A stretch of 35,872 nucleotides of DNA, taken from Candidatus Rifleibacteriota bacterium. GTDB lineage: Bacteria; Muiribacteriota; Ozemobacteria; Ozemobacterales; Ozemobacteraceae. Both the position numbers and the translations under genes were made by a program. Shown one piece after another: positions 11,435 through 35,872 of this stretch. Positions within the stretch are counted from its first letter, which is position 1; every line of letters begins with the position of its first letter. The notes beneath the pieces are model-generated. The model saw only the letters and a list, made by a program, of their open reading frames with translations. It did no database searches and was not told the DNA's origin. The stretch is taken from NCBI GenBank assembly GCA_012517355.1, contig JAAYVD010000133.1, forward strand, positions 1 to 35,872, in the 5' to 3' direction.

Positions 11435-12988
11435 GTGGTAGAACCATGGGGTATTTGCCAGAAGGAGGTTCCGGCCATCGAGCAGCTGCCAGGCATCACT
11501 CCCCCGCCGCCCCCCCAGGATCGCGTCCTGATCATCGAGGACGACCCCGATTCGGGGAACCTTCTGGTGGAGACCCTCTCGGTGGAAGGCTACGAGGTCC
11601 GGCTCGCCACCGACGGGTCGTCGGTGCTGGAGACGGTGGAGGAGTTCCGTCCCGACCTGGTGCTGCTCGACGTCATGATGCCGAGCATCGACGGCCTGGA
11701 GATGTGCCGGCAGCTCCGCCTGCAGGAATCGACGCGCACGTTGCCGATCCTGTTCCTGACCGCGAAGGACGACCTTTCCGACAAGATCAAGGGCTTCCAG
11801 GCTGGCGGCGACGACTACATCACCAAACCGTTCATCATCAGCGAGCTGCTGGCCAGGCTGCAGGCCCACCTGCGCATCCAGCGGCTGAAGCGGGACCTCG
11901 CGCTCTCGGAAGAACGGTACCGGTTGCTCATCGAAAACTCGCCCGACGGTATCGTCCTGCTGTCGCCGGCACTCGAGCTGCTGTTCCACAACGCCCGGTT
12001 CCTGGAGATCCTGCGCGGGCAGACCCAGGAGGCGCTGACCGGGCGTGTCCTGCAGTCCCTCTTCCCGATTTCCGAGTTGTTCGCCGAGATCTCGGCCATC
12101 GTCGAACGGGTCAAGGCCGCGGGCGGGCCGGCGATGAAGGAAGCGACGATCGCGGCCAGCAACCACCGCTCGGTCTACCTCGAGATCTTCGGCATGCCGG
12201 TCCACAACCAGGGCGGGCAGGTGGCGATGTACCAGGTGGTCTTCCGGGACATCACCCAGCGCAAACGCATGGAAGAGGCGCTGCTGCAGGCCGAGAAGAT
12301 CAACGCCCTGGGTATCCTGACCGCGGGCATCGCGCACGAGATCAACAACCCGTTGACCGGCATCAGCAACGCCATCCAGATCCTGCAGCGGGGGACGGTG
12401 GCCAAGAAGCGTCAGGACGAGCTGTTCGGGCTGGTGCTCGACAACATCGAGCGCATCGTGCGCATCGTCAAGGACCTGCGCATCTTCTCGCATCCCCACG
12501 AGTCGGCCCCCGCCCTGTTCCCGGTCAACGAGGCGGTGGCCGAGATGGTCAGCCTCGCCCGCTACCAGGTGGGGCGCGCCCGCATCACGCTGGAGATGCG
12601 GCCTTCCCCGGAAGCGCTGTTCCTGTTCGGCGACCGGCACCAGTTCCAGCAGGTGATTTTGAACCTGGTGGTGAACGCCATCCAGGCCATCACGGCGGAG
12701 ACCGGCCAGGTGACCGCCTCGGTGCAACGGCAGGGCGAGAAGGCCATGATCACCGTGGAGGACACCGGTTCGGGCATTTCCGCCAGCCAGATGTCGAGGA
12801 TCTTCGACCCGTTCTTCACCACGAAACGGGACTGGAAGGGGACGGGACTCGGCCTGGCCGTGGCCTACCGCATCGTGCAGTTGTTCAAGGGCACGTTGAC
12901 GGTGCAGAGCACGGTCGGGGTGGGCTCCCGGTTCATGATCACCCTTCCCCTGCATCCTCCTCCGACGGCTCCCGCGGCCCCCAGGTAG
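11435..12988 (+). CDS. Hybrid signal-transduction protein: receiver - PAS - histidine kinase
   Basis: Residues are numbered from the GTG at 11435. A receiver domain (about 30-150) has the acidic pair EDD (35-37), phospho-acceptor D79 in VLLDVMM, T109 and K131 in TKPF. A PAS domain (about 160-275) follows. The kinase has the H-box GIAHEINNPLTG with H301, an N-box LNLVVNAIQAI, and the DTGSGIS and GTGLGLA ATP-site motifs. It is soluble, with no membrane segment, so it probably acts downstream of another sensor through its receiver domain. No GTG/ATG start has a ribosome site. A strong AAGGAGG at 11462-11468 is placed eight bases before an in-frame ATC at 11477, the likely true start, which gives MEQLPGITPPPPPQDRV as the N-terminus. 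The 3' end overlaps the convergent glycosyltransferase gene by 50 bases. Confidence 0.93.
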   Translation: MVEPWGICQKEVPAIEQLPGITPPPPPQDRVLIIEDDPDSGNLLVETLSVEGYEVRLATDGSSVLETVEEFRPDLVLLDVMMPSIDGLEMCRQLRLQESTRTLPILFLTAKDDLSDKIKGFQAGGDDYITKPFIISELLARLQAHLRIQRLKRDLALSEERYRLLIENSPDGIVLLSPALELLFHNARFLEILRGQTQEALTGRVLQSLFPISELFAEISAIVERVKAAGGPAMKEATIAASNHRSVYLEIFGMPVHNQGGQVAMYQVVFRDITQRKRMEEALLQAEKINALGILTAGIAHEINNPLTGISNAIQILQRGTVAKKRQDELFGLVLDNIERIVRIVKDLRIFSHPHESAPALFPVNEAVAEMVSLARYQVGRARITLEMRPSPEALFLFGDRHQFQQVILNLVVNAIQAITAETGQVTASVQRQGEKAMITVEDTGSGISASQMSRIFDPFFTTKRDWKGTGLGLAVAYRIVQLFKGTLTVQSTVGVGSRFMITLPLHPPPTAPAAPR

Positions 12989-14570
12989 GTTTCGGCACGG
13001 TCGCCAGGCGGTCGGCCAGGAGCCGGCTGCCGGCGCGCCAGTCGGGGAAGGTGCGCGCCAGGCGGAGGGCCTCGGCGCCCTTGGCGCGGGTGGCGGGGCG
13101 GTCGGTGAAGGCCTCCCGCAGGCGCTGCCGGAAGTGGGCGAGGTCGGGTTCCTCGAGGTCGGTGGCGGGGGAATCGGTGAACAGATAGCCTTCCGGGGCC
13201 TTGATCGGCACGGTGCGGACGGGGAAGCCGGTCACCTCGTCGAGGCCCACCAGGCGCTGGAGCTGGGCGGGGCCGATCACCGGCCGGCCGCAGGCCATGG
13301 CCTCGCGCACGGTCAGGGCGGTGAGGAAGGACCGGTTGGCGCAGACATAGGCGTGGGAGCGGGCCAGGAGGGCGGCGATCATCTCGTCCTCGACGGGGTC
13401 GTCGATGACCAGGACGCGGGCCAGCATCGAGTTCAGGGCGCCGAGGCGGCCCTGCAGATCGGGGATCTCGTAGGGGAATTTCTTGCGGGGCTTGGCTTCG
13501 TGGGCCAGTTTGACGATCAGCACGACGGGCTCGGCGGCGGTGAACTCCTCGACATAGGCGCGGAGCAGGAGGTCGAGGCCTTTGCGTTGGAGGGGGCTGG
13601 TGACGGCGGCGAAAATGAAGCCGTCCTCCTCGGCCAGGAAGTCGGGGGGCGCGGCCTTCTCGTGGAAGATGCGGGCATTGACCCCGACGGGGGCCACGAC
13701 CAGTTTTTCGGGAGGAATCCCGGCGGCGATGGCCTGTTCCCGGTGGAGGTCGGAGGGGAGGAACACCAGTTCCGGGGCTTTGAGGCGGGCGGCTTCGGGG
13801 GCGGACAGCCGGAAGGGGTCGAACGCGGTCAGGGCCCAGTAGATGCCGCGATCGACGTCGGCGGGGAGGGTGGAGGCGGGGCCGCAGGCGAGGCGGACGC
13901 GGCCGGTGGGTGGGCGGCGGGCGATCTTCTGGAGAAGCTGCGGCAGGGGAAGATCGGGCCGGTGGCCGTAGGAGGTGGTTCCCTGGATGGCGGTGGGGAA
14001 CTCGAGGCCGCGGGCGCCGAGGATGAACTCGCGCATGCTGCGGCCGGCCCAGGTGGTGGCCGTCGGGTCGCCGAGGAAGCAGCAGCGGGCGAAGGGCTGG
14101 GGGCCGCCCGCGAGGGAGCCCTCTTCGCCGTCGATCTGGGAGTCGGGGTGGTCGGTGGGCGGGCGTGGCGGTCGATAACCGCGGTCGCGGTCACGGTCGT
14201 AGCGCGGGCGTGGAGGTCGGTCGCCGCCTTCGCGCTCGAAGCGCGGGCGTGGAGGCCGGTCGCCGCCTTCGCGCTCAAAGCGTGGTCGTGGAGGCCGGTC
14301 GCCGCCTTCGCGTTCGTAGCGCGGGCGTGGGGGCCGGTCGCCGCCTTCGCGTTCGAAGCGCGGGCGTGGGGGGCGGTCACCGCCTTCGCGCTCAAAGCGT
14401 GGTCGTGGAGGTCGGTCACCGCCTTCGCGTTCGAAGCGGGGGCGTGGGGGCCGGTCGCCGCCTTCGCGTTCGAAGCGGCTGCGTGGCGCCCTCTTTCCCC
14501 CCTTCCAGACACGTGCCGGGCGTGGGGAGCGGGCGGGATGAGGACGCTTGCGTGGTCGGTCCATGGTCAT
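12939..14570 (-). CDS. GT4-type glycosyltransferase with Arg/Gly-rich N-terminal repeat region
   Basis: Residues 150-543 look like a GT-B glycosyltransferase: FLPSDLHREQAIAAGIPPEKL and VAPVGVNARIFHE match the mid-domain 'S..v....g.....v.p.GvD...F' signature. FAAVTSPLQRKGLDLLLRAY is the usual 'R KG.d.Ll.A' donor block. Near the end, LTALTVREAMACGRPVIG gives the 'EAMACG.PVI' motif that binds the sugar-nucleotide phosphates. Residues 33-123 are seven copies of FEREGGDRPPRPR, a disordered basic tail resembling RGG/RNA-binding tails and unusual for this family. The start at 14570 overlaps the PHP stop (ATGA); an ATG six bases later has better ribosome-site spacing. No signal peptide. The donor and acceptor sugars cannot be told. 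Confidence 0.85.
   Translation of the reverse strand: MTMDRPRKRPHPARSPRPARVWKGGKRAPRSRFEREGGDRPPRPRFEREGGDRPPRPRFEREGGDRPPRPRFEREGGDRPPRPRYEREGGDRPPRPRFEREGGDRPPRPRFEREGGDRPPRPRYDRDRDRGYRPPRPPTDHPDSQIDGEEGSLAGGPQPFARCCFLGDPTATTWAGRSMREFILGARGLEFPTAIQGTTSYGHRPDLPLPQLLQKIARRPPTGRVRLACGPASTLPADVDRGIYWALTAFDPFRLSAPEAARLKAPELVFLPSDLHREQAIAAGIPPEKLVVAPVGVNARIFHEKAAPPDFLAEEDGFIFAAVTSPLQRKGLDLLLRAYVEEFTAAEPVVLIVKLAHEAKPRKKFPYEIPDLQGRLGALNSMLARVLVIDDPVEDEMIAALLARSHAYVCANRSFLTALTVREAMACGRPVIGPAQLQRLVGLDEVTGFPVRTVPIKAPEGYLFTDSPATDLEEPDLAHFRQRLREAFTDRPATRAKGAEALRLARTFPDWRAGSRLLADRLATVPKPTWGPREPSEEDAGEG
14202..14474 (-). repeat. Seven 39-bp in-frame tandem repeats in the glycosyltransferase gene
   Basis: Seven copies of a 39-base unit encode FEREGGDRPPRPR (one copy with Tyr for the first Phe). 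Copies differ mostly at synonymous positions (for example TTCGAAGCG vs TTTGAGCGC forms on the minus strand), so the array is selected at protein level and not a brand-new expansion. Confidence 0.9.
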
Positions 14571-21324: not shown

Positions 21325-22712
21325 CGGCTGGAAATGGGGTTCAGCATGAGCAGGGTCGCCAGGTTGCTGCGCGTGACCCGCTCCATCAGGTTGGGGTCGA
21401 GGTTGGCGACCAGGTCGGTGACCTTGTGGTAGTGGGCCGACATCTCGGGATACCCCTCGATGGTCAGGATGGCGGGAACCCCGATGTTCCAGAAGCTGGA
21501 ATGGTCGGAATACCAGATGTCGCTGTCATACAGGCACTTGCTCTCGAGGCCGGTGTAGAGCTTCGCCGTGTCCTTGAAGACGTCGATCAGCCAGTTCGAG
21601 GCGGTGTTGCCGATGACGGCGACCTGGTTGTCGTCACGGTCGGAGATCATGTCCATGTTCAGGACCGCCTTGATTTTCAGACCCTGGGTGGCCGCCAGTT
21701 GCTTGGCCACCGCCTTGCTGCCCACCAGGCCGACCTCTTCGGCGTTCATGCCGCAATACATGACGGTGTACGGCAGGGAAAGCCGCGACGCGACGCTGGC
21801 GACGTGCAGGACGCCCGCCGCCCCCGATCCGTTGTCGTCGGCCCCGGGAGCCTTGCCCGTGCCGCCACCCCATCCGACGGTGGAATCCATGTGGCCGCAG
21901 ACCACGATCACGGTGTCGGGGTCGGTCACGCCTTTCTGGATGGCCACGATGTTCGACAGCGGCTGGGAGGAATACGGGAAGGTGGGGGTCGCCACCTCGA
22001 GATTGGGCATTTTCTGGAACTGCTCGGCGAGCCACCGGACGGCCTGGGCGTTGCCTGCCGCGCGCACCTGGCGGCTGTAGCAGTCCTCCAGGGCCTGGAC
22101 GGTGGCTTTCATGTCATCCTTGGTGATCAGCTTGATCAGTTCCTGGATCCGGGGATCGAGCTCGATGCGGGGAGCCTTGGGCAGGCGGCCGAGGGACTTG
22201 AGGGGCAGCAGGGTCTCCTCGATCAAGCTGTAGCGAAGGAGGTTGTCGCCCAAAAACGCCTCGTCTTCCGGCCGGATGCGGATCACCCGCGTGTGACGGT
22301 CGGAAAACAGGGGTTCGAACTTCGAGCGCAGGAGTTCGTCCTGGGCCTCGTCCTCGACCCAGACCAGATACCAGGCCTCCCCGGCGTCGTCCAGGCGCTT
22401 CTTGTCGATGATGCGGGTTTTGAGGGCGGCCTTCCGCATGCGCTCGAGCCGCGAGTAGTTGACGTGGGTGAGATACCCCGCGGGGCTGGAGTAGCAATAC
22501 TTGCCCGCGTAGGCGAAGATCTTCGATTCATTCGCCTTGGACGGGGGGATCTGGACTTCGACGAGATACCCGATGCGGTCGACCCTTTTTTCCTCGCGAA
22601 GAGTCCTGATGAACTCGTCGAACTCGGCTTTCGGTTCCCCCGAAAGGGCGAAACCGGTGAGGGGAAGGGCCAGGGAACAGACCACCAGAAGGGCGAGCCA
22701 CCGACGCGTCAT
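21321..22712 (-). CDS. Secreted M28 family zinc aminopeptidase
   Basis: A signal peptide lies at residues 1-24 (RRWLALLVVCSLALPLTGFA). After an N-terminal region of about 200 residues resembling a prodomain, the M28 domain begins. Metal and catalytic residues are visible in order: CGHMDST (H274, D276), ADDNGSGAAG (bridging D292), NAEEVGLVGS (general base E325 and ligand E326), NMDMI (D354) and SAHYHKVTD (H429). M28 enzymes are di-zinc exopeptidases removing N-terminal residues from peptides. It is the first gene of an operon with GH13 and yjbQ, behind its own promoter. The start at 22712 has GAGGAGATGTACCC upstream. Confidence 0.93.
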   Translation of the reverse strand: MTRRWLALLVVCSLALPLTGFALSGEPKAEFDEFIRTLREEKRVDRIGYLVEVQIPPSKANESKIFAYAGKYCYSSPAGYLTHVNYSRLERMRKAALKTRIIDKKRLDDAGEAWYLVWVEDEAQDELLRSKFEPLFSDRHTRVIRIRPEDEAFLGDNLLRYSLIEETLLPLKSLGRLPKAPRIELDPRIQELIKLITKDDMKATVQALEDCYSRQVRAAGNAQAVRWLAEQFQKMPNLEVATPTFPYSSQPLSNIVAIQKGVTDPDTVIVVCGHMDSTVGWGGGTGKAPGADDNGSGAAGVLHVASVASRLSLPYTVMYCGMNAEEVGLVGSKAVAKQLAATQGLKIKAVLNMDMISDRDDNQVAVIGNTASNWLIDVFKDTAKLYTGLESKCLYDSDIWYSDHSSFWNIGVPAILTIEGYPEMSAHYHKVTDLVANLDPNLMERVTRSNLATLLMLNPISSR

Positions 22713-22991: not shown

Positions 22992-23633
22992 TCAGTGGGA
23001 AACAGGAGTGGCGTGCAGCATTTCGAACCTGTTCATCAGGTCACGGTCGCCCTGCCATCCCGGGTGGAGGATCTGCATCTGGTCCAACAGGAGGCCGATG
23101 TACTGCCGGTCATTTGGCGAAAGATGCGCGTAGACCGATTGTTCGAGCAGGGGGAAGAGGAGATCCCGGGGGTCGTGGACGGGACTGTCACCGATCGGAT
23201 AGGGGACCCGCCGGCCATTCGGCATTTCGCTCCAGGACCACCCGCTGGAGGGGTAGACGACCCGGCGGCCATCGCGGCCTTCGGTCCAGGTCCAGCCGCT
23301 GGAGGGATAGATGACCCGCACGTGGTCGCGGCCTTCGGTCCAGGTCCAACCGCTGGAGGGATAGACGACCCGGCGGCCGTCGCCGCCTTCGGTCCAGGTC
23401 CAGCCGCTGGAGGGATACACCACCCGCCGGCCATTGCGACCTTCGGTCCAGGTCCAGCCGCTGGAGGGATACACCACCCGTCGCCCATCCCCGCCCTCGG
23501 TCCAGGTCCAACCGGAGTCGGGATACCAGACGCGGAACCCGTCCTTCCCTTCGGTCCAGGTCCAGCCGGCGAACACGGCACCGTGCAGGACGAAAACCAG
23601 GATCAAACCCAGAAGCATGCTTCTCATCTTCAT
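22992..23633 (-). CDS. Secreted protein of seven tryptophan-rich 18-residue repeats (213 aa)
   Basis: The ATG at 23633 is preceded by GGAGGGAACACGAA; the frame is open further upstream without a ribosome site. Residues 1-22 are a signal peptide (MLLGLILVFVLHGAVFA). Residues 23-148 are seven tandem copies of GWTWTEGRDGRRVVYPSS, the last degenerate (GWSWSEMPNGRRVPYPIG). Each copy has two Trp, one Tyr and a GxDGRRVxYP turn, which suggests a beta-hairpin or short propeller/solenoid unit, possibly sugar- or surface-binding. A helical tail of 65 residues contains LEQSVYAHLSPNDRQYIG. I do not recognise the family. It stands alone between a terminator-like hairpin and a divergent LysM gene. Confidence 0.87.
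   Translation of the reverse strand: MKMRSMLLGLILVFVLHGAVFAGWTWTEGKDGFRVWYPDSGWTWTEGGDGRRVVYPSSGWTWTEGRNGRRVVYPSSGWTWTEGGDGRRVVYPSSGWTWTEGRDHVRVIYPSSGWTWTEGRDGRRVVYPSSGWSWSEMPNGRRVPYPIGDSPVHDPRDLLFPLLEQSVYAHLSPNDRQYIGLLLDQMQILHPGWQGDRDLMNRFEMLHATPVSH
23190..23567 (-). repeat. Seven 54-bp in-frame tandem repeats in the Trp-repeat gene
   Basis: Seven units of 54 bases (18 codons) with few nucleotide differences between central copies; first and last copies diverge more. The unit is CAGGTCCAGCCGCTGGAGGG-like on the plus strand. Confidence 0.92.
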
Positions 23634-23872: not shown

Positions 23873-24823
23873 ATGAACCGGAACCTGCTGCTTGCCTTCC
23901 TTCTGGTGTTCGGGCTGATCGGCGTTGGCTGGGCCTCCATGGACGACGTCCTGAATGACCATGACCCGTCCGACGATACCGCTGCGACCGTGACCGAGGC
24001 CGCCAAAGAGGTCAAGTCGATCGTTTCGACGATCGCCTCGGGCACCACGCCCCCGCCCAAGGACGTGGTCGACATGGTCGACAAGATCACCAAGCTCATC
24101 GAGGATATCACCAAGGCCCTGGAAGAGGTGGAAAAGACCGAGGGCAAGGATGGGAAGGAAGAGAAGTCCGGCAACTACACCGTCGTGAGCGGCGACTGCC
24201 TGTGGAACATCGCCAAGAAGTTCTACGGGGATGGTTCCGCCTACACCCGGATCGTCGAGGCCAACAAAGACAAATACCCCAGCCTCGCCAACAACCCAGA
24301 TCTCATCTACCCGGGCTGGGATCTGACGATCCCCGGGGCCGATGACACCCAGACCTCCAACAATAACAATAGCAGCGATTCCGGCACCACTCCCGACACC
24401 GGGTCGGCTCCTTCGGGGACCGCGGAAAAGGTCGCCGCCGTGGCCAAGACCTTCCCCAGTCGCTATAACGGCTACCAGAAGTTCCCGTATGCCGCCGGCA
24501 CCGAAGGCGGCAACCTCGGGTGCGCCAATGTCGTCTCGGCTGCCCTCAAGGAAGCCGGGGTCAACGTCTGGAGCTTGAACGTCACGGGCGTCAAGAATGC
24601 CCTGTTGGGCAAGGGCTGGAAACTGGTGAGCGCCCCCCCGTGGAAGGAAGGCGACGTGGTCTGCTGGAGCGCCCCCTCGGGAAGCATCCACGGGCACATC
24701 GGCATCGCCGTGAAGAACGGCAACTCGATGTCGGCCATGAACAACTCATCCACCCAGCGCAAGCCGATCTTCAGCACCCCGGTGAACTACCGGGCCGTGT
24801 CCTGCACCGTCCGCAAAATCTAG
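23873..24823 (+). CDS. Exported LysM protein with C-terminal cysteine-peptidase-like domain
   Basis: Residues 1-21 form a signal peptide (LLLAFLLVFGLIGVGWA). Residues 35-95 are an acidic helical/coiled region. A LysM domain lies at about 101-154 (YTVVSGDCLWNIAKKFYGD ... LIYPGWDLTIP), which binds peptidoglycan glycan chains. An Asn/Ser/Thr linker (155-185) leads to a C-terminal domain like NlpC/P60 or CHAP endopeptidases: nucleophile candidate C217 in NLGCANVVSAAL, GDVVCW (260-265), and HGHIGIAV with H273/H275. It is probably a cell-wall endopeptidase or amidase outside the inner membrane. The beta-propeller gene follows 19 bases later. Confidence 0.88.
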   Translation: MNRNLLLAFLLVFGLIGVGWASMDDVLNDHDPSDDTAATVTEAAKEVKSIVSTIASGTTPPPKDVVDMVDKITKLIEDITKALEEVEKTEGKDGKEEKSGNYTVVSGDCLWNIAKKFYGDGSAYTRIVEANKDKYPSLANNPDLIYPGWDLTIPGADDTQTSNNNNSSDSGTTPDTGSAPSGTAEKVAAVAKTFPSRYNGYQKFPYAAGTEGGNLGCANVVSAALKEAGVNVWSLNVTGVKNALLGKGWKLVSAPPWKEGDVVCWSAPSGSIHGHIGIAVKNGNSMSAMNNSSTQRKPIFSTPVNYRAVSCTVRKI

Positions 24824-26079: not shown

Positions 26080-27908
<1,829 letters not shown>

Positions 27909-28781
27909 TCAGTGGGTTTGGGCGTCGGCGCCGGCGATGACCTCGGAGAGTTCCTTGGTGATGACCGACTGACGGGTGCGGTTGAACTTCATGGTCAGCT
28001 CGTCGATGATCTCCTGGGCCCGGTCGGTGGCCGCGTCCATGGCCACCATGCGGGCCGCCTGTTCGGAGGCCGACGACTCGAGGACGGCCTTCATGAACAG
28101 GCCTTCAACGTAGCGGGGGATGAGGGCGGTGAGGATGGCCTCGGGCGAGGGGTCGAACTGGATGCGCTGGTCGCCATGGTGCCGTGACTTGCGTCCGACG
28201 CCGATTTCGGAGACGGGGAGCAGGATCCGGGTTTCGATGCGGCGTTCCAGCGTCGAGACGAAGTGGGTGTAGATGATGACCAGTTCGTCGATCACGCCGG
28301 TCGTGTAGAGGGAGATTGCGTTGCGGGCCGCCATGCCGAGGGCCTTCTGGGAATACTTCCCGACCAGGTCGGGGTGGCTGCCGATGACGGTGAAGGCCAG
28401 GCGGCGAAAATGGTCGACCCCCTTCTTGCCGATCAGGATCAGCTTCTTCTCCTGGCCGGGGTTGTCCTGGAGTCGCCGCAGGCAGGCCTTGACCAGGTCG
28501 TGGTTGAAGCTGCCGCAGAGGCCACGCTCGCCGGTGACCAGCACGATGCCCGTGGTCTTCACCGCTCGGCCGCCGAAGAGTGGGTGGGAAACGTTCGGGG
28601 GCAGCACCGCCCTTAGGTCGACCACCATCTGTTCGAGCTTTTCGAGATACAGGTGGGTCGACAGATAGGAATCCATGGCCCGGCGCAGTTTCACGGTGGC
28701 CATCATCTTCATGGCGCGCGTGATCTGCTGGGTGGAACGCACCCCCGTCATCTTCTTGCGGATGTCCTTGAGACCGGGCAT
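27909..28781 (-). CDS. atpG: ATP synthase F1 gamma subunit
   Basis: This 290-aa central-stalk subunit begins [29 protein letters not shown], with the conserved N-terminal helix, and ends with the conserved C-terminal helix RMVAMDAATDRAQEIIDELTMKFNRTRQ followed by SVITKELSEVIAGADA. The middle ERGLCGSFN block is typical. It overlaps the atpA stop by one base (TGATG). The rotor function is established for the family. Confidence 0.98.
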   Translation of the reverse strand: MPGLKDIRKKMTGVRSTQQITRAMKMMATVKLRRAMDSYLSTHLYLEKLEQMVVDLRAVLPPNVSHPLFGGRAVKTTGIVLVTGERGLCGSFNHDLVKACLRRLQDNPGQEKKLILIGKKGVDHFRRLAFTVIGSHPDLVGKYSQKALGMAARNAISLYTTGVIDELVIIYTHFVSTLERRIETRILLPVSEIGVGRKSRHHGDQRIQFDPSPEAILTALIPRYVEGLFMKAVLESSASEQAARMVAMDAATDRAQEIIDELTMKFNRTRQSVITKELSEVIAGADAQTH

Positions 28782-30400
28782 CAGGCCCTCTGGCGGGTGG
28801 GGCCGGCGGTTTCCCCGGGAGTTCCGGCCGCGGCGGCAGCCACCGCGGTCGTGGCCGTGGCCTCGGCGGAAGCCGCGGGCGGCGGTCCGGCAGGCTTGAA
28901 CTCGGTGTTCAGGAACTCCTGGACGATGCGGGGAAGGGCCTCGGCCAGGCCGGCGTCAATGACCTTCTCCTGCCGGATCTTGTACAACACCTCGGGGTGG
29001 CGCTGGGCGACGTGCCGGCAGAGGGCCTGCTTGAAGGCGGTGACATCCTTCAGGGGCAGGGGATCGAGGAACCCGTGGGAGGCGGCGAAGATGGTCAGGA
29101 CCTGGTCGGCCACCTCCATGGGCTGGTATTGGGGCTGCTTGAGCAGCTCGACCAGCCGCTCCCCGCGGGCCAGCTGGGCCTGGGTGGCCTTGTCCAGGTC
29201 CTTGGAAAACTGGGCGAAGGCGGCGAGTTCGCGATACTGGGCCAGTTCGAGGCGCAGGGGGCCGGCCACCGTCTTCATCGCCTTGATCTGGGCGTTGCCG
29301 CCCACCCGCGAGACCGACAGGCCGGCGTTGATGGCGGGCCGGACCCCGCTGTTGAACAGGCCCGCCTCCAGGATGATCTGACCGTCAGTGATCGAGATGA
29401 CGTTGGTGGGGATGTAGGCCGAGAAGTCGCCGGCCTGGGTTTCGATGATGGGCAGCGCGGTCAGCGAACCCCCGCCTTTCTCCTCGCTGAGCTTGGCGGC
29501 GCGCTCGAGCAGGCGGGCGTGCAGGTAAAAGATGTCGGAAGGGAAGGCCTCGCGGCCGGGCGGCCGGCGCAGCAGCAGCGACACCTGCCGGTAGGCGGCC
29601 GCGTGCTTCGACAGGTCGTCGTAGACGCAAAGCACGTGCTGTCCCTGGTCGCGGAAAAACTCCCCGATGGTGCAGCCGGCGTAGGGGGCCAGGAACTGGA
29701 GGGGGGCCGGGTCGGCGGCGTTGGCGGCCACGATCACGGTGTATTTCATGGCGTCGTGGCGCTCGAGGATGTCGGTGATCTGGGCTACGGTGGAGGTCTT
29801 CTGTCCGATCGCGACGTAGACGCAGATGACCCCGGTGTCCTTCTGGTTGAGGATGGTGTCGATGGCGATGGCGGTCTTGCCGGTCTGCCGGTCGCCGATG
29901 ATCAGTTCGCGCTGGCCCCGCCCGATGGGGATCAGTGCATCGACGGCCTGGATGCCCGTTTGCAGGGGTTCCTTGACCGGCTGGCGCTGCACCACGTTGG
30001 GGGCGGGCCGTTCCAGCGGCCACCGGTCGCGGGCGACGATGGGGCCCTTGCCGTCGAGGGGCTGTCCGATGGCGTCGACGATCCGCCCCAGCAGGGCGTC
30101 GCCGACCGGGACCGAAACGATCTTGTTGGTGTCCTTGACCAGGTCGCCCTCATGGATTCCCTCGTCGGGGCCGAGGATGATGCAGCCGACGTTGTCCTCC
30201 TCGAGGTTGAGCACGTAGCCCTTGATGCCGTTCGGGAACTCCAGCAGGTCGCCGACCATGGCGTTGGGCAGGCCGTGGATGCGGGCGATGCCGTCGCCCG
30301 CCAGGAGGACCTGGCCGGCTTCGACCAGTTCGTGCTCGGAGGAGAACGCCTCGATTTCCTTCTTGAGGATGGCCACGATTTCTTCGGGCTTGATGGGCAT
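28781..30400 (-). CDS. atpA: ATP synthase F1 alpha subunit with Ala/Pro-rich C-terminal extension
   Basis: This 539-aa subunit has the Walker A motif GDRQTGKT (169-176), QKTSTVAQ, the [24 protein letters not shown] region and the arginine-finger block ISVTRVGG-like ([14 protein letters not shown]). The start at 30400 is the usual MPIKPEEI with ribosome site AAAGGATCC. The core ends at about EFLNTEFK; the last 40 or so residues are Ala/Pro/Thr-rich ([13 protein letters not shown]), which is not part of the normal alpha subunit and may be a disordered tail. It binds nucleotide non-catalytically. Confidence 0.97.
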
Positions 30401-35469: not shown

Positions 35470-35744
35470 GGGGCGACCTCCCGTGCGTTGGTGTCCCTTT
35501 ATACCTCGTTTGGGAGGCGAAGGGAATCCCGGGGGAAAAGGGGTAAGAATGAATGATTCGAGGCTGAATGTCTCGGTTTCTGGCGGTCAGGGGGAATGGC
35601 GGTGATTTTGGATTTTGGGAACGTAAGGAGAAGGGGGGACGGAGGGGAAGGGGCGAGCGGGTTGGAAGAGCCGTCGGAAAAAGGATCCGGGCTGGGAGGG
35701 GAGAAGGCAGACGGGGGGGGGGCAGATGAGGGCGAGGACAATTG
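35470..35744. other. Non-coding, purine-skewed region without genes
   Basis: After the debranching-enzyme start no credible gene is present. From about 35620 the plus strand is mostly G and A with several GGGG runs, ending in a nine-G run near 35713-35721. Short open frames here are composition artefacts. A G-quadruplex or triplex structure is possible. No RNA gene is recognised. Confidence 0.6.
35498..35503 (-). promoter_or_regulatory. Possible -10 element for the debranching enzyme
   Basis: TATAAA on the minus strand, five of six consensus, 29 bases before the start codon. No clear -35 is found at 16-18 bases. Confidence 0.4.
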
Positions 35745-35872
35745 GCGAGGACAGAGGGCGAGGACAGAGGGCGAGGACAGAGGGCGAGGACAGAGGGCGA
35801 GGACAGAGGGCGAGGACAGAGGGCGAGGACAGAGGGCGAGGACAGAGGGCGAGGACAGAGGGCGAGGACAGA
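35745..35872 (+). repeat. Perfect 13-bp tandem repeat running off the window
   Basis: The unit GCGAGGACAGAGG repeats about 9.8 times without any mismatch up to the last base, after a related first copy (GGCGAGGACAATT, from 35731). It is a minisatellite; the true length is unknown because the window ends inside it. There are no spacers, so it is not a CRISPR array. Confidence 0.97.

What the first reader, a model, noticed from the sequence alone, without database searches (positions are those of the whole stretch)
22992..23633. Secreted protein built of seven GWTWTEG-DGRRVVYP repeats
Seven nearly identical 18-residue units with two Trp, one Tyr and an Arg pair each, after a signal peptide. I know of no family with this unit. 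The arrangement could make a Trp-lined surface for carbohydrate or membrane binding, and copy number is prone to change by recombination.
Basis: partly seen in the sequence, partly recalled or inferred. Interest (0 to 1): 0.6.

Follow-up and report, generated by a model that had tools for sequence, protein, structure and literature searches.

The report
Secreted Trp-rich beta-hairpin repeat protein
A small secreted bacterial protein carries seven copies of an 18-residue unit, not described in the databases searched, that is predicted to fold into one long free-standing beta-sheet lined with tryptophan; relatives were found only in its own small bacterial phylum, some of them fused to a TPR domain, and its function is untested.

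Summary
The minus-strand gene 22992-23633 encodes 213 residues: a signal peptide (1-22), seven 18-residue units GWTWTEGxDGRRVVYPSS (23-148), and a 65-residue helical tail. No Pfam, NCBIfam, PHROG or PDB family matches. Relatives turned up in five other genomes of the same phylum (40 held). Three same-family orthologues also have seven units, matching unit by unit, then the tail, then a TPR domain that the window gene lacks. A fourth relative has six units; a fifth has eleven degenerate ones. AlphaFold2 without an alignment folds the array confidently (pLDDT 85-95 over most units) as 14 short antiparallel strands; the antisense reading of the same repeat DNA gets pLDDT 42. The best solved-structure match (weak, E 0.06) is the TCP10/G-box domain of CPAP, a free-standing single-layer beta-sheet that binds a proline-rich peptide. 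Conservation fits a sheet with a Trp/Pro row and an alternating Glu6-Arg12 row on one face, with distinct end units. Most likely it is an exported binding or scaffold module; the ligand is unknown. New variant of a known kind.

The parts
22992..23633 (-). whole gene, 213 aa plus stop; its own transcription unit by position
   Evidence: divergent gene starts at 23873 (+), next gene on the same strand starts at 22712
23568..23633 (-). signal peptide, residues 1-22 (MKMRSMLLGLILVFVLHGAVFA)
   Evidence: by eye: charged n-region, hydrophobic core, AVFA before the cut; also hydrophobic in the orthologues
23514..23567 (-). unit 1, GWTWTEGKDGFRVWYPDS; N-terminal end unit with an aromatic at position 14 (Trp/Tyr in all five arrays)
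23244..23513 (-). units 2-6, five inner 18-residue units, each a predicted hairpin WTWTE / RRVVY with tight turns at xDG and SSG
23190..23243 (-). unit 7, GWSWSEMPNGRRVPYPIG; C-terminal end unit with Pro/Ala at position 14
22995..23189 (-). C-terminal tail, residues 149-213, predicted helical, with the L..LL....LLLxQM pattern found only next to this array; the last ~20 residues align with the first TPR helix of the longer orthologues

Best explanation
An exported protein whose seven-unit array folds into one free-standing, single-layer antiparallel beta-sheet of 14 five-residue strands. Each 18-residue unit is one hairpin, and tight turns (x-D-G and S-S-G) join strands both within and between units. 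One face carries Trp2/Trp4/Val14/Pro16 rows and an alternating Glu6-Arg12 row; the other carries Thr3/Thr5/Val13/Tyr15. Distinct first and last units end the sheet. It most likely works as a rigid recognition surface or scaffold outside the cytoplasm, gripping an extended ligand (a proline-rich or otherwise extended peptide, or a glycan) with its aromatic rows, as the TCP10/G-box sheet of CPAP grips a proline-rich peptide. In relatives the same module is attached through the helical tail to a TPR domain; the window protein keeps only module plus tail. Shown: gene, signal-like N-terminus, array, conservation, fixed number and register, TPR fusion in relatives. Predicted: strands and turns. Inferred: single layer, face assignment, ligand binding.
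For: AlphaFold2 on the window sequence alone: pLDDT above 85 for about the first 110 residues of the array, strands 2-6, 12-16, 20-24 and so on at period 18, helices in the tail. The antisense frame of the same repeat DNA gives mean pLDDT 42.5, so repetition alone does not give the confidence. The two best PDB fold matches are TCP10 domains of CPAP (E 0.062, prob 0.87), described as a single-layer sheet of ~20 antiparallel strands with type I turns and exposed aromatics binding prolines (PMC3776556). Conserved positions over 34 units fit the register: W4 33, R12 33, W2 32, E6 32, Y15 32, P16 32, T3 31, G10 31. Four same-family arrays have seven units each, orthologous by index. TPR in relatives: TPR_6 at 34.8 bits against a cut-off of 26.3 in P0005.
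Against: The model is single-sequence, with overall pTM 0.56, and the last unit and tail are poor. The Foldseek hit is weak (E 0.06) with TM-score 0.25. Coordinates could not be inspected, so single layer versus a curled or closed sheet is not shown. No sequence similarity to TCP10 was found. WTW motifs occur in designed trpzip hairpins (SWTWENGKWTWK, e.g. PMC2705519), which may colour the predictor. No ligand, partner gene or conserved neighbourhood supports a specific role.
Confidence: 0.5

Rival explanations
1. Hairpin solenoid like choline-binding (CW_binding_1) or MORN repeats: units stack as separate hairpins in a superhelix, with Trp pockets between neighbouring units that bind small aromatic-loving ligands such as amines or sugars of the cell envelope.
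For: Trp/Tyr-rich hairpin units of similar length; LytA choline-binding domains appear lower in the fold search (ranks 5, 12, 25, 31).
Against: LytA matches have prob 0.02-0.04 against 0.87 for TCP10. Predicted links between units are only three residues, too short for the separate-hairpin arrangement; MORN has a 6-residue connecting loop (PMC7725318). No CW_binding or MORN Pfam hit.
Confidence: 0.2
2. Self-assembling matrix or fibre protein (curli-like): the open sheet edges join end to end into fibres on the cell surface.
For: Free edge strands are inherent in an open sheet; secreted, repetitive, aromatic-rich; both faces of such a sheet are exposed.
Against: The end units are distinct in all five arrays, and the last strand carries Pro/Ala at position 14, which would discourage edge pairing; TPR fusion suggests a recognition protein. 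The TCP domain itself is monomeric (PMC3776556).
Confidence: 0.12
3. Cell-wall or glycan binder working with the neighbouring LysM-CHAP hydrolase and the cell-wall genes in the window.
For: Divergent neighbour at 23873 has LysM and a sub-threshold CHAP match; an M28 peptidase lies downstream and MurJ is nearby.
Against: No neighbour is shared with any relative's locus, so the linkage is probably accidental.
Confidence: 0.15

Closest known systems
TCP10_C / G-box domain of CPAP (SAS-4), PF07202, PDB 4bxp
   Same: Predicted to be alike in architecture: a long meander of short antiparallel strands with tight Gly-containing turns and exposed aromatics; best fold match.
   Different: No sequence match; turns are RDG/SSG rather than PDG; bacterial and secreted; strictly periodic 18-residue unit with Trp pairs; ligand unknown.
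Choline-binding repeats (CW_binding_1, e.g. LytA)
   Same: Tandem Trp/Tyr-rich hairpins of about 20 residues on exported bacterial proteins.
   Different: No Pfam match; links between units are too short; fold match poor.
MORN repeats
   Same: Tandem hairpins with Trp, Gly and Tyr.
   Different: 23-residue unit with YxGEWxxGxxxGxG, absent here; longer connecting loop.
RTX nonapeptide repeats (GGxGxDxUx)
   Same: 18 residues could be two nonapeptides; weak tblastn and phmmer hits fall on RTX proteins.
   Different: No 9-residue period and no Ca-binding Asp at position 6; the hits look compositional.
Trpzip designed hairpins (SWTWENGKWTWK)
   Same: WTW-turn hairpin motif (sequence as given in PMC2705519).
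   Different: Trpzip has Trp on both strands; here Trp is on one strand only, facing Val/Pro.
Phylum-specific secreted TPR proteins (SP, TPR, DPFxGF...KFExLH)
   Same: Three orthologues carry this TPR and C-terminal helix after the array and tail.
   Different: The TPR domain is absent from the window protein.

Membership tests
TCP10_C (G-box) | match to the Pfam profile PF07202 or to TCP10 chains by sequence | tested here: not met
   no match; PF07202 finds nothing over cut-off in 40 genomes and does not hit this locus
TCP10_C (G-box) | single-layer meander of short antiparallel strands with tight turns | tested here: inconclusive
   14 predicted strands with 3- and 5-residue loops; best fold match but E 0.06 and TM 0.25
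TCP10_C (G-box) | binding of a proline-rich peptide along the sheet edge | not testable with these tools
   -
Choline-binding repeats (CW_binding_1) | match to the Pfam profile | tested here: not met
MORN repeats | YxGEWxxGxxxGxG, 23-residue period | tested here: not met
   period 18, no GxG; no Pfam match
RTX repeats | GGxGxDxUx with 9-residue period | tested here: not met
Phylum-specific secreted TPR proteins | TPR domain | tested here: not met
   absent in the window gene and in the 280 bp downstream in all three frames; present in three orthologues
This array family (array plus LLxQM tail) | units of about 18 residues followed by the conserved helical tail | tested here: met
   six genomes; the only six significant tail-profile hits in 40 genomes are next to arrays

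The most novel reading that the evidence does not exclude
A bacterial, exported, free-standing single-layer beta-meander built from near-perfect 18-residue Trp hairpins: an independent bacterial counterpart of the TCP10/G-box sheet, an architecture its describers called unique among natural proteins, used as an interchangeable recognition module on secreted TPR proteins.
Probability: 0.4. Interest if true: 0.65.

Novelty: new variant of a known kind. Interest (0 to 1): 0.45.

Why it matters
If the model is right, it gives a second natural example of a sheet with no hydrophobic core, in a very regular, sequence-simple form suited to studying how such sheets stay soluble and to building repeat scaffolds. 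It also names a module and a fusion architecture in a sparsely sampled phylum.

Tried and rejected
Pseudomonas loci from the genome-contig scan: an ATP-grasp-like enzyme sharing one 8-mer (IGDSPVHD), chance. Kitasatospora plasmid hit: GC-rich DNA repeat WCGSEGGAGRRVVRVGG, not a relative by eye; RTX calcium-binding hits: compositional. G014:C180 (VPSDGHTVTGGPAVARE repeats): a different repeat sharing little but DG. G100 hit: no convincing array in its reading frames. Phage and viral collections: nothing. Frameshifted TPR downstream of the window gene: not found in any frame. Synteny among relatives: none.

Full report
What is there. The minus-strand ORF 22992-23633 encodes 213 residues: a signal-peptide-like start, seven 18-residue units (residues 23-148) and a 65-residue tail. 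The periodicity is far beyond chance (85/108 lag-18 identities against a maximum of 28 in 20,000 shuffles). Units 2 and 4 are identical in protein with 8 synonymous differences, and third codon positions vary most, so the units are held alike by selection on the protein rather than by a very recent duplication alone.

Relatives. The protein was searched in its own genome, in 57 relatives, in all 40 held genomes of the phylum, and as an array profile in 382 genomes of 324 genera. Real relatives lie in five other genomes, all of the same phylum: G012, G023 and G004 (same family), G035 (another family) and G014 (same family, diverged). G012, G023 and G004 have seven units, the tail, then a TPR region and a C-terminal helix. 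G035 has a Cys-rich zinc-ribbon-like N-terminus, six units and the tail, then stops. G014 has eleven 17-residue units (WxxxEGxDGRxVxYP) and the tail. G021 has a contig beginning inside the same TPR domain, so its array, if any, is off the contig. The first three genomes and the window are orthologous unit by unit (mean identity 0.72 for same index against 0.62 for different index; 0 of 5,000 permutations). The tail profile finds six significant hits in 40 genomes, each directly after an array. Proteins with the TPR domain but no array are common in the family. The window protein ends within what is the first TPR helix of the longer orthologues, and no TPR remnant follows in any frame. None of the neighbours is shared among loci. 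The sample covers a few hundred genomes outside the phylum, so restriction to this phylum is a provisional statement.

Structure. AlphaFold2 on the mature window sequence alone gives pLDDT above 85 over about the first 110 residues, two five-residue strands per unit (W2-E6 and R12-P16) and helices in the tail; the last unit and tail are of low confidence. As a control for confidence gained by repetition alone, the antisense reading of the same DNA, also an 18-residue repeat, was folded: mean pLDDT 42.5. Loops of 5 residues (G-R-D-G-R) and 3 residues (S-S-G) leave room only for neighbouring strands to pair, which means a meander (inference). The best PDB fold matches are the TCP10 domain of CPAP, wild type and mutant (E 0.062 and 0.17, prob 0.87 and 0.66), with low TM-score. 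That domain is described as a single-layer sheet of about 20 antiparallel strands with type I turns, lacking a hydrophobic core, binding prolines with aromatic residues (PMC3776556). No viral structure matches well.

Reading the conservation on that model (inference). With pairs summing to 18 within a unit and 36 between units, one face has rows W4-V14, W2-P16 and E6-R12, and the other T3-Y15 and T5-V13. The most constant positions of the 34 units are W4 and R12 (33), then W2, E6, Y15 and P16 (32). R11, which would sit at the turn, varies. Position 14 is aromatic in the first unit of all five arrays and Pro/Ala in the last, as expected of end units that differ in role.

Function. No family, partner or neighbour names the ligand. 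An exported rigid surface with aromatic rows, fused to TPR in relatives, is most simply a binding or scaffold module. Peptide, glycan and self-assembly remain open and are listed as rivals.

Known families. Pfam, NCBIfam, PHROGs and PDB sequence searches give nothing convincing for the array. PF07202 does not match it. RTX, MORN and choline-binding features are not met. The string GWTWTEG is in no paper of the library.

Verdict. The closest architecture is known, so it is filed as a new variant of a known kind, with moderate interest that depends on the predicted single-layer sheet. The organism was not identified.

Noticed in passing
window 14197-14477 (gene 12939-14570, -): A protein with an N-terminal stretch of about seven RFEREGGDRPPRP units (13 aa, basic and acidic, probably disordered) before a glycosyltransferase-like domain (by eye).
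   Followed up: no
window 35728-35872: The contig ends inside a 13-bp tandem repeat (GAGGGCGAGGACA, 11 copies).
   Followed up: no
window 23873-24823 (+): Divergent neighbour: secreted LysM protein with a sub-threshold CHAP match.
   Followed up: partly
window 26469-30400 (-): ATP synthase gene cluster (alpha, gamma, beta-like subunits); the beta-like subunit carries a C-terminal domain of V/A type.
   Followed up: no
L051, L035, L036, L049, L050, L037-L040, L052, L053: A phylum-wide family of secreted TPR proteins with a conserved C-terminal helix (DPFxGF...RVxxFIxAV...KFExLH), many copies per genome and no Pfam name found here.
   Followed up: partly
L020 (G014:C180): A secreted 582-aa protein with VPSDGHTVTGGPAVARE repeats, a different 17-residue-scale repeat.
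   Followed up: no
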